Origin: Telluria aromaticivorans
GTDB taxonomy: Bacteria > Pseudomonadota > Gammaproteobacteria > Burkholderiales > Burkholderiaceae_D
NCBI RefSeq assembly: GCF_013003915.1
Contig: NZ_JABAIV010000001.1
Span: 248,001-312,000 of the forward strand
DNA: 64,000 nucleotides
Direction of reading: 5' to 3'
Positions 34,228 to 43,150 of the stretch are shown here, one piece after another; positions within the stretch are counted from its first letter, which is position 1, and every line of letters begins with the position of its first letter. A program made the position numbers and the translations under genes. The notes beneath the pieces are model-generated. The model ran no database searches. It saw nothing but the letters and a program-made list of their open reading frames with translations, and was not told the origin of the DNA.

Positions 34228-36468
34228 ATGAGCAAGAAAGAGTTTCGCCTGAACCCGTCGCTGCTGGCGGCAGCGGCGGCAGGCATCATGTCCGGCAATG
34301 CGGCGGCACAGGAAGCATCGATCGGCACGACGCCGGCGGAAGTCGTGGTCACCGCCACCCGCCTGCCCACCCTGGCCTCACGCACCCCGGTCGCCATGAG
34401 CGTGGTCAGCGGCGCGCAGCTGGTCATGGAGGGCAGCGACAGTCCGGCCCAACTGGGCAAGCGCCTGCCCAACCTGCATCTCGACCAGGCCGCCGAAGGC
34501 TTGCGCATCACGATCCGCGGCGTCACCAATTCCGATTCCACCGACAAGGGCGACCCGTCGGCGGCCTTCCTGCTCGACGGCGTGTATATCCCGCGCGGGC
34601 CGGCCCAGACCTTCGCCTTCCTCGATGTCGACCGCATCGAAGTGCTGCGCGGCCCGCAGGGCACGCTGTATGGCCGCAATACCACGGCCGGCGTCATCAA
34701 CGTCATCTCGAATGCACCGACCGCGCGCTTTGACGCCAGCGCCGGCGCCGAAGCCGGCAGCTTTAACAGCCGCAAGTTCAATGCCACCGTCAACGTGCCG
34801 GTCAGCCCTGCGCTGGCCCTGCGCGCCGCGGTTGCCGGCCAGCGCCACGACAGCTACCTGCACAATGCCCAGGGCACCCCGTACGAACTGGGCCTGGACC
34901 GCGGTGAGCGCAGCGCGCGCCTGTCGGCCCTGCTCGCGCTCGGCCAGGATGCCGCGCTATTGGTGCGCTACGACCATGGCCGCGCCTCCGAGAACAACGA
35001 CCGCTTCGTCCCCGACACCAACTTCTATGACGGCATCTCGACCGGCACCCCGAACTGGCGCGCGGGCAGCACCGACCAGCGCCTGACCAATGCCTTCCGC
35101 CCGCCCAACACGGTGCCGGAACAGGGCTATAACGAGAAGCGCGCGCGCGGCCTCGGCGCGCAGCTGGAATGGAAGCTTGGTGCGGCCACGCTCACCTGGC
35201 TCGGTTCGCACCGGCGCTTCGACCAGGACATGCTGGTCAACTATTACTACCGCGTGGCACCGGGTTTCGCGCTGGGCGTGCACAACCTGTACACCGGCAA
35301 GAACCAGGCCGACTCGCACGAGCTGCGCGTCTCGACCGATGCCGCGCGCGCACTGAGCGGCCAGGCCGGCCTGTACTATTTCAGCGAAGAGTCGCACACG
35401 ACCTATAGCTTCCGCGGCCTGCAGCTGCTTGGCCTGCCGCCCTATTACGTGTTTCCTTCCGGCCCGACCAAGGCCGACAGCCGCGCCGTCTTCGGCCAGC
35501 TGACCTGGCGCATGACCGACCGGGTGCGCGCCACCGCGGGCGCCCGCAGCACCCACGACGACAAGTCGCGCATCGGCTCCACCAACTTCCAGCTGGCCGC
35601 GGCCTTCAATCCGGCCACCGACACCCGTTTGCTGAACGCGGCGCAGATCGAGACCAGCAAGACCACCTGGCGCCTCGGCCTGGACGCCGACATTGGCGCC
35701 AGCACCCTGGCCTGGCTCAGCATCGCGACCGGCTACAAGGCCGGCGGCTTCAATGACGGCTGCGCGGCCGGCAGCACCGCGCTGGGCATCGGCTGCCCGC
35801 CAGCCATCGCCGTGCCTGCCTCCACCCTGTTCTACCAGCCGGAGACCCTGCGTTCGATCGAGATCGGCAGCCGCACCCGCTTGTGGGATGGCCGCGCGAC
35901 GGTCAACGCCGTGGCCTTCGACTACGACTACACCAACCTGCAGCTGTCCGGCGTTGCCGTCCTGCAGGGCGCGCCGCGCTTCGTGACCAGCAACGCGGGC
36001 GTCGCCAGCGTCAAGGGCCTGGAGCTCGACGGCACGGTGCAGGTGCTGGAGCGCGGCAGCCTGGCCTGGAGCCTCACACTGCTCGACGCCCATTACGACG
36101 TCTACTCCCCGGATGGCGTGCGCTCCTGGGCCGGCCGCAAGCTCGACCGCGCACCCAGCCGGGTCGCCACCCTCGGCTACGACCACCGCTTCACCCTGGG
36201 CGGCGGCCAGCTCACGGCGGGCATGTTCGCACGTGCCAGCAGCGAGTACGTGATCGCCGTCCCGAGCCAGGGACTGAGCTACCGCATCCCGTCGCACACC
36301 AGTACCGACCTGCGCCTCGGCTGGCAGCCGCAGGGCGCGCCCTGGAGCGTGCTGGCGCGGGTACGCAACCTCGAAGACAAGGTCAGGCCAATCGCGATCG
36401 ACAGCTTCGGCATGACCACGCCGAGCGACCCGCGCACGGTCGACCTGCGGGTCGACTACCGGTTCTGA
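34228..36468 (+). CDS. TonB-dependent outer-membrane receptor
   Basis: 746 residues from ATG 34228, with AGGGG upstream. Signal peptide to ~AAAQEA, plug domain with the TonB box region (EVVVTATRLP) and the motif VDRIEVLRGPQGTLYGRNTTAGVIN, then a 22-strand barrel ending in the outer-membrane C-terminal signature VDLRVDYRF. This subtype is common in sphingomonads and Burkholderiales for lipids, aromatics or siderophores. It heads a five-gene unit with a carotenoid-type membrane protein, an MpaB-like oxygenase and signalling genes, suggesting a hydrophobic terpenoid-like ligand (inference). Confidence 0.93.
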   Translation: MSKKEFRLNPSLLAAAAAGIMSGNAAAQEASIGTTPAEVVVTATRLPTLASRTPVAMSVVSGAQLVMEGSDSPAQLGKRLPNLHLDQAAEGLRITIRGVTNSDSTDKGDPSAAFLLDGVYIPRGPAQTFAFLDVDRIEVLRGPQGTLYGRNTTAGVINVISNAPTARFDASAGAEAGSFNSRKFNATVNVPVSPALALRAAVAGQRHDSYLHNAQGTPYELGLDRGERSARLSALLALGQDAALLVRYDHGRASENNDRFVPDTNFYDGISTGTPNWRAGSTDQRLTNAFRPPNTVPEQGYNEKRARGLGAQLEWKLGAATLTWLGSHRRFDQDMLVNYYYRVAPGFALGVHNLYTGKNQADSHELRVSTDAARALSGQAGLYYFSEESHTTYSFRGLQLLGLPPYYVFPSGPTKADSRAVFGQLTWRMTDRVRATAGARSTHDDKSRIGSTNFQLAAAFNPATDTRLLNAAQIETSKTTWRLGLDADIGASTLAWLSIATGYKAGGFNDGCAAGSTALGIGCPPAIAVPASTLFYQPETLRSIEIGSRTRLWDGRATVNAVAFDYDYTNLQLSGVAVLQGAPRFVTSNAGVASVKGLELDGTVQVLERGSLAWSLTLLDAHYDVYSPDGVRSWAGRKLDRAPSRVATLGYDHRFTLGGGQLTAGMFARASSEYVIAVPSQGLSYRIPSHTSTDLRLGWQPQGAPWSVLARVRNLEDKVRPIAIDSFGMTTPSDPRTVDLRVDYRF

Positions 36469-36529
36469 CGCACAGGCACCATCCGACAACATCACCGGCG
36501 CTTGCAGCGCGCAGAGAGGAAACACCGAT

Positions 36530-41700: not shown

Positions 41701-42239
41701 AACGCGCCGGAAGCTTCTTGCGCGAATACGGCAATGCGCCTCACATCCTGCGCGAAGCCCTGGCCGCGGGCGACTACGCCCGCCTGCAGTCTCTGGCGCA
41801 CAACCTGAAGTCGAGCGCGGCCTATGTCGGCGCCTTCGAACTGTCGGCCCAGGCCAACCGCGTCGAGCAAGACCTGCGCGCCGGCCAGTTCGACCTGCTG
41901 GGCGCCCGCATCCCGGTGCTGGTGCGTTCCAGCGAAACGGTGCTGAACGGCCTGGCCCGGCTGGCCGCCGTGCCGCTGGCGCAAGCCGGCGGCGCGGCCG
42001 GGCTGCCGGACGTGATGGCGCGCCTGGACAGCTTCCTGGCCGACGACGACGCGCGCGCCGAGGATGCACTGGCCGAGCTGCAGCTGCTGCTGGCCGGCAC
42101 CGCGCACGCCGCAGCGCTCGACCCGATTCGGCGCGCGGTCGAGGATATCGAATACGCGGCGGCGCGCCCGCCGCTGTCCAGCCTCGCGCGCAGTCTTGAG
42201 GCCCTTAGCCTGGACGCAGCCGGGGAGACCCGCCCATGA
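38721..42239 (+). CDS. 7TMR-DISM hybrid histidine kinase with two receivers and HPt
   Basis: 1172 residues; ATG 38721 overlaps the oxygenase stop by four bases. Order: signal peptide, periplasmic 7TMR-DISM sensing domain (~35-195), seven transmembrane segments (~205-405), HisKA with phospho-His433 ([12 protein letters not shown]), HATPase (~545-660), REC1 with Asp726 ([10 protein letters not shown]), REC2 with Asp875 ([10 protein letters not shown]), and a C-terminal HPt with His1027 ([13 protein letters not shown]). DISM domains bind carbohydrates or other small molecules outside the cell. Coupling to the oxygenase gene suggests that it senses the same compound or its product. Confidence 0.92.
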
Positions 42240-43150
42240 CCGGGACCGACCTGCAGAAAGTTCTGGTGGCGGATGACGACGCCATCAACCGCGACGTGCT
42301 GGGCGAACTGCTCAAGCCCGAATACACGCTGCTGCTGGCCAAGAATGGCGCCCAGGCACTGGAACGGGCCGCACGCCATGCGCCCGACCTGATCCTGCTC
42401 GACGTGATGATGCCGGACATGGACGGCTACGAGGTGCTGCGCCGCCTGCGCGCCGACCCGCAGACCGCGCACATTGCCGTGATCTTCATCTCCGGCCTGG
42501 ACCGGCCAGAGGACGAAGCCAATGGACTGAAAATGGGTGCGGCCGACTACATCACCAAGCCCTTCAACCCCAGCGTGGTGATGGCGCGCGTGGCGGTTCA
42601 CCTGCAGGTGGTGCGCCAGCGCCGCATGCTGGAGCGGCTCGCGAATATCGACGGCCTGACCGAACTGGCCAACCGCCGCCGCTTCGACGAAGTGTATGAA
42701 CTCGAATGGCAACGCGCGCGCCGCAACGGCCAACCGCTGTCGCTGGCCCTGCTCGATATCGACTCGTTCAAGCAGTTCAACGACCGCTACGGCCACCCAG
42801 CGGGGGACCGCGTGCTGCGCGCCGTTGCACGCCTGGCGGCGGTCGGCATGCGGCGCCCGGCTGACCTGGCCGCGCGCTACGGCGGCGAGGAACTGGTGCT
42901 GCTGATGCCCGAGACCGACGCCGAAGCGGCGCGGCTGGTGGTGGCCGGCATCTGCGAGGGCATCGCGCAGCTGATGATTCCCCATGAAGCCTCGAACGTC
43001 GCGCCGGTGCTGACCGTCAGCGTGGGCGGCGCCACCCTGCTGGCGGACAGCCGCGAACTATCGGCCGAACTGTTCGAGGCGGCCGACACCCATCTCTACC
43101 GCGCCAAGCAGTCGGGACGCAACCGGATCGCCTGGCGCAACGACGTGTAG
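42236..43150 (+). CDS. REC-GGDEF response regulator (diguanylate cyclase)
   Basis: 304 residues; ATG 42236 overlaps the kinase stop by four bases. An N-terminal receiver (~8-120) has phospho-Asp56 ([10 protein letters not shown]), Thr/Ser and Lys (TKPF, 108-110). The GGDEF domain (~130-300) has GGEEL at 216-220 (usually GGEEF) and the metal/substrate region [16 protein letters not shown]. It is the likely phosphorelay partner of the hybrid kinase and would make c-di-GMP when phosphorylated. The tandem with the kinase and metabolic genes is unusual. Confidence 0.92.

What the first reader, a model, noticed from the sequence alone, without database searches (positions are those of the whole stretch)
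34228..43150. Five-gene unit joining a TonB receptor, DUF422 protein, MpaB/Lcp-type oxygenase, hybrid kinase and cyclase
The sequence shows five co-directional genes, the last four linked by 4-base overlaps at 37342, 38721 and 42236. DUF422 (CruF-like) and DUF2236 (rubber oxygenase Lcp, MpaB) both act on isoprenoid or carotenoid chains in known members. The downstream kinase has an extracellular DISM sensor, and the regulator makes c-di-GMP. I infer a system that imports and cuts or modifies a terpenoid-like lipid and uses it to control biofilm or motility. I know of no described system with this set of genes.
Basis: partly seen in the sequence, partly recalled or inferred. Interest (0 to 1): 0.75.

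Follow-up and report, generated by a model that had tools for sequence, protein, structure and literature searches.

The report
Oxygenase-linked membrane receptor controlling c-di-GMP
A small set of genes that probably modify an oily, double-bond-containing molecule sits, in many related soil and water bacteria, next to a membrane receptor of a poorly understood class that controls the biofilm messenger c-di-GMP, which gives a way to find what that receptor senses.

Summary
The unit is conserved. In the best 80 of 140 named loci carrying this PF09995 oxygenase subfamily, a 7TMR-DISM receptor gene lies just downstream in 79 and DUF422 is adjacent in 67. The wiring differs: Massilia and kin use a hybrid kinase plus a response-regulator GGDEF, with TonB in front (40 of 80); Acidovorax, Undibacterium and kin fuse the same receptor clade to GGDEF; Hydrogenophaga and Caenimonas use another receptor clade with a degenerate GGDEF, a separate recruitment. 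The oxygenase has the Lcp fold (Foldseek 4e-10); all 80 keep Lcp's heme ligand and catalytic Arg and Thr. An isoprenoid substrate is not shown; a self-made carotenoid is unlikely in general, as phytoene synthase passes its cut-off in 5 of 49 unit-bearing genomes. In 11 genomes kinase and cyclase remain without either enzyme, 10 of them with TonB. I propose that the enzymes make or modify the receptor's ligand and that TonB imports it. I saw no paper describing this set.

The parts
34228..36468 (+). TonB-dependent outer-membrane receptor (plug and barrel found, no N-terminal STN signalling domain found; nearest solved structure by sequence is the pesticin receptor 4epa)
   Evidence: present in 41 of 42 loci with DUF2236 (window and 41 fetched; missing in L081) and in 10 of 11 Massilia-group loci without DUF2236
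36530..37345 (+). DUF422 / PF04240 integral membrane protein, distant relative of carotenoid hydratase CruF but below CruF cut-offs
   Evidence: adjacent to DUF2236 in 67 of 80 named loci
37342..38724 (+). DUF2236 / PF09995 heme oxygenase-like protein (Lcp/MpaB fold); His183, Arg148, Thr152, Arg180, Thr241 equal LcpK30 His198, Arg164, Thr168, Arg195, Thr230
38721..42239 (+). hybrid histidine kinase: periplasmic 7TMR-DISMED2, 7TM DISM, HisKA, HATPase, two receivers, Hpt; phospho-sites present by inspection
42236..43150 (+). response regulator-GGDEF diguanylate cyclase; motif GGEEL, I-site RPAD; receiver Asp56 by inspection
37342..37345 (+). 4-base overlap GTGA of DUF422 stop and DUF2236 start
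38721..38724 (+). 4-base overlap ATGA of DUF2236 stop and kinase start
42236..42239 (+). 4-base overlap ATGA of kinase stop and cyclase start

Best explanation
This is a modular ligand-and-receptor unit that sets c-di-GMP. A heme oxygenase of the Lcp/MpaB fold (DUF2236), helped in most lineages by a membrane hydratase-like protein (DUF422), makes or modifies a hydrophobic, alkene-containing molecule at the inner membrane. A 7TMR-DISM receptor encoded directly downstream senses that molecule from the periplasm or membrane. In the window the receptor is a hybrid kinase that passes phosphate through two receivers and an Hpt domain to a response regulator with an active-looking GGDEF domain; in other families the same receptor clade is fused straight to GGDEF. 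The TonB receptor of the Massilia-type Oxalobacteraceae lets the same molecule be taken up from outside, which would explain genomes that keep TonB, kinase and cyclase but have lost both enzymes. Shown by computation: gene order, conservation, fold, heme and active-site residues, DGC motif, enzyme-less relatives, two separate receptor recruitments. Inferred: catalysis, identity of the ligand, direction (making rather than destroying it), uptake by TonB, and the cell behaviour controlled.
For: (1) A DISM receptor lies directly downstream of the DUF2236 gene in 79 of 80 named loci, though several of the seven genomes counted hold few DISM genes (own genome 2, an Undibacterium 1, one Acidovorax 2; others 3, 4, 8 and 13). 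(2) The receptor was recruited at least twice: 27 linked receptors form one branch (support 90/96) spanning kinase-type and GGDEF-fused proteins, and the two linked Hydrogenophaga/Caenimonas receptors fall among unlinked DISM paralogues (starred branch 97/91). (3) DUF422 tracks DUF2236: all 30 relatives with a DUF422 over 300 bits also have DUF2236, and such a DUF422 is missing in 12 of 42 with DUF2236. (4) Lcp fold at Foldseek E 4e-10 and profile E 6e-17. Arg164, Thr168 and Thr230 equivalents are kept in 80 of 80 without being demanded by the search patterns; His198 and Arg195 equivalents also 80 of 80, but they lie in one of the two patterns. (5) Characterised relatives Lcp, MpaB and Nro1 cleave C=C bonds (passages of PMC5522427, PMC6311187, PMC12724181). 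(6) 11 Massilia-group genomes have the receptor but neither DUF2236 nor DUF422; 10 of the 11 loci keep TonB, kinase and cyclase. (7) The RR-GGDEF motif is GGEEL/F/M/I in 40 of 40 and RxxD is kept in 38 of 40.
Against: No substrate, product or ligand is known. DISMED2 domains are predicted to bind carbohydrates (PMC8846402 passage; PMC6107284 passages), not lipids, and P. aeruginosa NicD is said to bind carbohydrates (PMC8544897 passages). Loss of the enzymes with the kinase kept also fits a ligand-degrading or nutritional role. Lys167 of LcpK30 is Ser, Ala or Gln here in 78 of 80. In Hydrogenophaga-type loci the GGDEF motif is gone (7 of 7 ORFs of that cluster), so c-di-GMP is not made by that protein. 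Two Massilia-group DUF2236 proteins (L082, L103) have Ala at Thr152 and lack the Asp130 stretch. One locus (L166) has no DISM neighbour, and one Massilia-group locus (L086) shows no GGDEF gene within the 20 kb.
Confidence: 0.42

Rival explanations
1. Import-and-turnover or nutritional module: TonB takes up an environmental hydrophobic compound (a plant or microbial terpenoid, for instance), the DISM kinase senses it, and DUF2236 then DUF422 break it down, so the enzymes end the signal or feed on it.
For: TonB-kinase-cyclase without enzymes in 10 of 11 enzyme-less loci; in the 199 relatives a close DUF422 occurs only with DUF2236, fitting a two-step pathway with DUF2236 first; of the relatives described in the passages read, Lcp and Nro1 degrade polymers. 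In Acidovorax-type loci an alpha/beta hydrolase gene (20 loci) lies upstream and a berberine-bridge-type FAD oxidase gene (13 loci) downstream, and four Ramlibacter/Caenimonas-type loci have a FAD-linked oxidase.
Against: 40 of 80 loci have no relative of this TonB gene within 4.5 kb upstream (three of them have less than that on the contig) yet 39 of these keep enzyme and receptor adjacent; the extra oxidase and hydrolase genes were each seen in one lineage only; MpaB works in biosynthesis, not breakdown (passage).
Confidence: 0.27
2. The DUF2236 protein is not an enzyme but a globin-fold heme sensor (O2, NO or redox) that partners the DISM receptor, as H-NOX and NosP partner kinases and cyclases.
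For: LcpK30 is described as a globin fold similar to globin-coupled sensors (PMC5522427 passages); heme sensors acting on c-di-GMP partners are a known arrangement (search listing and starts of abstracts).
Against: Arg164 and Thr168, needed for Lcp activity although their Ala variants still hold heme (PMC5522427 passages), are kept in 80 of 80; it leaves the co-inherited DUF422 unexplained.
Confidence: 0.15
3. Membrane-lipid or pigment tailoring with monitoring: the pair modifies a resident isoprenoid (squalene, hopanoid, quinone or carotenoid) and the DISM receptor reads the state of the membrane.
For: 48 of 49 unit-bearing genomes have squalene/phytoene-synthase-like genes, mostly with scores like those of HpnC and HpnD (identity inferred); the own genome has HpnC, HpnD, HpnE, CrtB and CrtY, and 35 of 39 own-genus genomes have three or more PF00494 genes, so pigments may be common in the genus. 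CruF and MpaB act on isoprenoid chains.
Against: Squalene/phytoene synthase genes are present in 60 of 63 genomes whether or not they have the unit; CrtB passes its cut-off in only 5 of 49, among the 16 Massilia-type genomes in 5.
Confidence: 0.1
4. Chance or hitch-hiking: the genes are neighbours but work apart.
For: DUF2236 and DUF422 are absent from several loci that keep the kinase.
Against: 79 of 80 adjacency over several families with different receptor architectures, a second independent recruitment, 4-base overlaps.
Confidence: 0.04

Closest known systems
Latex clearing protein LcpK30 (PDB 5o1l/5o1m) and the MpaB/PF09995 heme oxygenases (MpaB, Nro1)
   Same: Fold (Foldseek E 4e-10 to 5o1l; a t-anethole oxygenase, 8s1j, follows at 0.01), PF09995 over cut-off, proximal His and catalytic Arg/Thr.
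   Different: Distal Lys167 absent; no obvious secretion signal at the N-terminus (inspection); sits in a signalling operon in Gram-negative bacteria. The review PMC6311187 (passages) states that no Lcp homologue was known in Gram-negatives in August 2018.
CruF / bisanhydrobacterioruberin hydratase (PF04240)
   Same: PF04240 over cut-off; Glu73, Asp151, Asp155 kept in 67 of 67.
   Different: Below the CruF equivalog cut-offs (88.5 of 154.7, 76 of 400, 43.8 of 300); no carotenoid gene in the operon, and 44 of 49 unit-bearing genomes have no CrtB over its cut-off.
NicD of Pseudomonas aeruginosa (DISMED2-7TM-GGDEF)
   Same: Receptor architecture of the Acidovorax-type members of this unit (NicD from PMC8544897 passages).
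   Different: No oxygenase or DUF422 partner is mentioned in the passages read; in the window the receptor and cyclase are split by a phosphorelay.
RetS and LadS hybrid kinases
   Same: DISM sensor on a histidine kinase tied to biofilm control (PMC6107284 passages; finer domain details recalled).
   Different: Here the kinase is paired with a GGDEF response regulator, a TonB receptor and two putative lipid enzymes.
H-NOX and NosP heme sensors with kinases or cyclases
   Same: Heme protein working with a c-di-GMP signalling partner (abstracts in the listing).
   Different: No H-NOX or NosP-type domain found in the five proteins; conserved oxygenase active site.

Membership tests
PF09995 / MpaB-Lcp heme oxygenases | Family score over the curated cut-off | tested here: met
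   48.2 bits against 23
PF09995 / MpaB-Lcp heme oxygenases | Proximal His198 with Arg164 and Thr168 (LcpK30 numbering) | tested here: met
   His183, Arg148, Thr152; 80 of 80 named loci; Thr152 is Ala in 2 of 34 aligned sequences
PF09995 / MpaB-Lcp heme oxygenases | Lcp fold | tested here: met
   Foldseek E 4.4e-10 to 5o1l, TM-scores 0.56 to 0.73; model pLDDT 85.5
Lcp rubber oxygenase proper | Distal Lys167 | tested here: not met
   Ser in the window; Ser/Ala/Gln in 78 of 80; only 59% conserved among Lcps (PMC5522427 passage)
Lcp rubber oxygenase proper | Cleavage of polyisoprene outside the cell | not testable with these tools
   no obvious signal peptide by inspection; activity needs an assay
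CruF carotenoid hydratase | Equivalog score over cut-off | tested here: not met
   88.5 of 154.7, 76 of 400, 43.8 of 300
CruF carotenoid hydratase | Genome makes C40 carotenoids | tested here: inconclusive
   own genome has CrtB and CrtY; CrtB over cut-off in 5 of 49 unit-bearing genomes, four more score 149 to 413 bits
7TMR-DISM receptors | DISMED2 and 7TM domains over cut-off | tested here: met
   70.7 of 22 and 100.1 of 29 bits
NicD-type DISM diguanylate cyclases | DISM sensor fused to GGDEF in one chain | tested here: not met
   split in the window; fused in Acidovorax-type relatives
Diguanylate cyclases | GG(D/E)EF-type active site and I-site | tested here: met
   GGEEL with RPAD; 40 of 40 RR-GGDEF relatives keep GGEE, fifth residue varies
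FecA-type TonB transducers | N-terminal STN signalling domain and FecR/FecI partners | tested here: not met
   only plug and barrel found in the receptor, and no such families in the other four proteins; genes outside the operon were not searched for them
H-NOX / NosP heme sensors | H-NOX or FIST-type domain | tested here: not met
   no such Pfam match in the five proteins

The most novel reading that the evidence does not exclude
The unit is a shared chemical signalling system: DUF2236 and DUF422 make an oxidised isoprenoid-like or other alkenyl lipid signal, a 7TMR-DISM protein is its receptor, and c-di-GMP is the output. Genomes with enzymes but no TonB would be producers, those with both would produce and take up, and those with TonB and receptor but no enzymes would listen in on neighbours. 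It would be a lipid signal pathway for 7TMR-DISM receptors, reached twice in evolution.
Probability: 0.22. Interest if true: 0.85.

Novelty: new variant of a known kind. Interest (0 to 1): 0.62.

Why it matters
7TMR-DISM receptors are widespread but few have been studied, and their sensor domains are mostly predicted, not shown, to bind carbohydrates (PMC8846402 and PMC6107284 passages). A receptor that is almost always encoded next to its own small-molecule enzymes, in lineages with different output wiring, turns the ligand question into a testable enzyme question: delete the oxygenase, compare lipids, and see what moves c-di-GMP. It also places an Lcp/MpaB-type heme oxygenase, known in the papers read for cutting rubber and terpenoid chains, in bacterial signalling.

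Tried and rejected
Carotenoid pathway: considered because of DUF422 and because the own genome has CrtB and CrtY; rejected as the general substrate because CrtB passes its cut-off in only 5 of 49 unit-bearing genomes. Against that rejection: four more genomes (those of L143, L165, L126, L157) score 413, 198, 195 and 149 bits, and 35 of 39 own-genus genomes have three or more PF00494 genes. Squalene: synthase genes are present nearly everywhere, with or without the unit, so uninformative. FecA-like transducer: no STN domain found. Riboswitch: no Rfam match at gathering score over 31000-46000. Promoters and terminators: no excess over shuffles. Plasmid carriage: no plasmid record covers 80% of the oxygenase; the 10 listed of 12 show 24-29% identity. 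DUF422 structure: no PDB fold match at E <= 0.001; MvINS, an Insig homologue, appears at probability 0.95 but E 0.26, too weak to use. Wider class: 5 genomes other than the window's own, of 369 sampled, have relatives, all much weaker; one (L202) has a hybrid kinase and an RR-GGDEF about 2 and 6 kb downstream but no match to the DISM part. Literature: searches; no paper joining this oxygenase family with a DISM receptor or c-di-GMP was seen. One search listed all 10 of its papers, none holding 7TMR-DISM; one search matched 1,694 papers, of which I saw the 15 listed, none holding an MpaB term; one search found 0 papers. Subscription papers and preprints are not held.

Limits of the counts: the 80 named loci are the best 80 of 140 found with DUF2236 patterns, so they cannot show how often DUF422 or the receptor occurs without DUF2236; searches show 11 Massilia-group genomes with the receptor and without DUF2236. 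One search covers 49 genomes: I named 50 of the 80 loci and one was not held. 'No TonB' means no relative of the window's TonB gene within 4.5 kb upstream; other outer-membrane proteins and the rest of those genomes were not searched, and three of the 40 loci have less than 4.5 kb there. Named loci and G-handle genomes overlap in part and were not added together. Four DISM rows were dropped before the tree (L227, L232, L236, L237). In one search the label was set per kinase by distance, so the second kinase of tandem pairs (L089, L094, L102) and the one in L104 count as 'no DUF2236', which inflates its 11 changes. L077 (one internal stop in DUF2236) and seven loci judged redundant by eye were left out of alignment A1 (34 rows used, window included, of 42). 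Alignment A2 used the window and 20 of 31 DUF422 loci. Which DISM genes lie at this locus (11 of 33) I judged from coordinates.

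
Full report
What is there. Overlaps are GTGA, ATGA and ATGA; TonB and DUF422 are 61 bases apart. Pfam gives plug and barrel, Caroten_synth, MPAB_Lcp_cat, DISMED2 + 7TMR-DISM + HisKA + HATPase + two receivers + Hpt, and receiver + GGDEF, all over their cut-offs. The histidines and aspartates of the phosphorelay are present by inspection, and the cyclase has GGEEL with an RPAD I-site.

Is the neighbourhood conserved? Among 199 relatives, 42 (own genome included) have this DUF2236 and 30 have a DUF422 over 300 bits; all 30 are among the 42 (overlap read by me from the two lists). 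In the window and 41 fetched loci with DUF2236, a TonB relative is present in 41 of 42 and the order TonB-(DUF422)-DUF2236-kinase-GGDEF recurs, with DUF422 sometimes missing or placed after DUF2236. A scan of named genomes found 140 relatives and kept the best 80; 77 of the 80 are Burkholderiales by their names and 3 are named no more finely than class. With fixed distance rules, 79 of 80 have a DISM receptor directly downstream, 67 of 80 have DUF422 adjacent (65 before, 2 after), 40 have TonB, and those same 40 have the hybrid kinase and RR-GGDEF; they are 39 Oxalobacteraceae records and one Burkholderiaceae MAG. The other 39 with a receptor have it fused to a GGDEF or GGDEF-like domain; many Acidovorax loci carry two or three in tandem. 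One locus (L166) has no DISM neighbour.

Three wirings of one module. Pfam confirms DISMED2-7TM-GGDEF in two Acidovorax proteins and DISMED2-7TM with a divergent GGDEF in a Hydrogenophaga protein. Of 48 fused ORFs in 30 loci, 41 carry RLGGDEF, one RLGGDDF and six gave no motif by my pattern; the 7 ORFs of the Hydrogenophaga/Caenimonas cluster have no such motif. Counts of the 7TM domain in seven genomes gave 33, of which 11 are at this locus by their coordinates; the own genome has 2, an Undibacterium 1 and one Acidovorax 2, a Caenimonas 13. A tree of 44 receptors puts 27 linked ones, kinase-type and GGDEF-fused, on one branch (support 90/96), while the two linked receptors of Hydrogenophaga and Caenimonas fall among unlinked DISM paralogues. 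So the same sensor clade is wired to c-di-GMP by a phosphorelay in one group and by direct fusion in others, and a second sensor clade was placed beside the enzyme pair independently, or replaced the first.

The oxygenase. A profile of 34 sequences matches LcpK30 at E 6e-17, and the model (pLDDT 85.5) matches 5o1l at Foldseek E 4e-10 and a t-anethole oxygenase, 8s1j, at 0.01. By alignment His183 is His198, the proximal heme ligand; Arg148, Thr152, Arg180, Arg187 and Thr241 are Arg164, Thr168, Arg195, Arg202 and Thr230. All are kept in 80 of 80 named loci. His183 and Arg180 fall in one of the two scan patterns, so their conservation is partly by selection; the others do not. Glu148 is Asp or Glu in 71 of 80. 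Lys167, the closed-state ligand, is Ser/Ala/Gln in 78 of 80. In LcpK30 the Arg164Ala and Thr168Ala variants still hold heme but lose all or nearly all activity (PMC5522427 passages), which favours an enzyme over a mere heme sensor. Against this, two Massilia-group proteins outside the 80 (L082, L103) have Ala at Thr152 and lack the Asp130 stretch; both loci lack DUF422, as if enzyme and partner decay together.

DUF422. It belongs to PF04240 but scores below all three CruF equivalog cut-offs listed. Glu73, Asp151 and Asp155 are kept in 67 of 67. The model (pLDDT 86) has no significant PDB match.

What the substrate is not likely to be. The own genome has CrtB, CrtY and the squalene genes HpnC, HpnD, HpnE. 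But CrtB passes its cut-off in 5 of 49 unit-bearing genomes searched (5 of the 16 Massilia-type ones); four more score 149 to 413 bits, and 48 of 49 have some related synthase, mostly with scores like those of HpnC and HpnD. Squalene/phytoene synthase genes are in 60 of 63 genomes regardless of the unit, and 35 of 39 own-genus genomes have three or more, so pigments may be common in the genus. A home-made carotenoid is therefore not the general substrate, though it is not excluded in the window's own organism; squalene or another lipid is not excluded, and an imported compound is equally open.

Which parts depend on which. Searching 199 relatives with the receptor domain gave 52 genomes with a hit over 350 bits (counted by me from the list); 41 of them have DUF2236. 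The other 11 have neither DUF2236 nor DUF422 anywhere; in 10 of the 11 loci TonB, kinase and GGDEF remain, and L238 has kinase and GGDEF alone. On a tree of 62 receptor domains DUF2236 changes 11 times (8 forced by well-supported branches), DUF422 9 times and TonB 3 times; the DUF2236 figure is inflated because second kinases of tandem pairs were labelled by distance. One genome (G004) keeps a 67-residue DUF422 match before its second kinase. So in this sample DUF422 needs DUF2236, the kinase core does not need either, and TonB stays with the kinase. This is why I place the enzymes as suppliers or modifiers of the ligand rather than as part of the receptor.

Most likely mechanism. DUF2236 oxidises an alkene-containing hydrophobic molecule, DUF422 hydrates or otherwise modifies it in the membrane, the DISM receptor senses the product or substrate, and c-di-GMP changes. 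TonB imports the same molecule in the Massilia group. Making versus destroying the ligand cannot be told apart from sequence. I lean to making it, because half of the named loci have no such TonB gene and 39 of those 40 still keep enzyme and receptor side by side, and because the pairing arose twice. The turnover or nutrition reading is close behind: Acidovorax-type loci add an alpha/beta hydrolase upstream (20 loci) and a berberine-bridge-type FAD oxidase downstream (13 loci), and four other loci a FAD-linked oxidase, though none of these is shared between lineages. In Acidovorax the region also contains mutS further upstream, so part of that neighbourhood is ordinary synteny. The heme-sensor reading remains possible.

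Known or new. DISM receptors with GGDEF output (NicD) and DISM histidine kinases (RetS, LadS) are known (PMC8544897 and PMC6107284 passages). The census PMC8846402 (one DISM passage read) names DISMED2 among domains without validated role, predicted to sense carbohydrates. Lcp, MpaB and Nro1 are known alkene-cleaving enzymes (passages). I saw no paper that joins them (open-licence PMC only). I therefore call it a new variant of a known kind: c-di-GMP receptor signalling, with an enzyme module that is new to it.

Noticed in passing
L238-L248 (11 Massilia-group genomes): TonB, DISM hybrid kinase and RR-GGDEF occur without DUF422 and DUF2236 in 10 of 11 loci; L238 has kinase and cyclase alone.
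   Followed up: yes
L087, L088, L089, L093, L094, L102 and their named counterparts: Two DISM hybrid kinases in tandem, the first directly after DUF2236, as if a TonB-DUF2236-kinase unit and a DUF422-kinase-GGDEF unit had been joined; L104 shows DUF422 with a kinase at a separate place in G042.
   Followed up: partly
L154, L161, L165, L169, L171, L184, L187: DISM proteins next to DUF422-DUF2236 whose GGDEF domain has lost the active-site motif; possible c-di-GMP or GTP receptors or scaffolds.
   Followed up: partly
window 32124-34100 (-); also near the unit in L084, L085, L089-L091, L102, L238-L240, L242-L244, L246: A divergently placed glycoside hydrolase family 43 gene (PF04616, 162.6 bits) is often conserved upstream of the TonB gene.
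   Followed up: partly
L200 (G000:C18:598000-614000): The own genome has CrtB and CrtY about 43 kb from its second, stronger-scoring PF09995 gene (C18:648564).
   Followed up: partly
Acidovorax-type loci such as L162:8122-8949 and L162:15242-16738: An alpha/beta hydrolase gene before and a berberine-bridge-type FAD oxidase gene after the unit recur in Acidovorax-type loci (20 and 13 loci); either ordinary synteny or further pathway steps.
   Followed up: partly
L202 (G446, another family of the class): A distant DUF2236 relative lies about 2 kb from a hybrid kinase and 6 kb from an RR-GGDEF 40% identical to the window's, without a match to the DISM part.
   Followed up: partly
model of DUF422: Weak fold resemblance to the mycobacterial Insig homologue MvINS (probability 0.95, E 0.26); not significant.
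   Followed up: no
L077 (G035): The DUF2236 gene has one in-frame TGA, perhaps a recent pseudogene or an assembly error.
   Followed up: no
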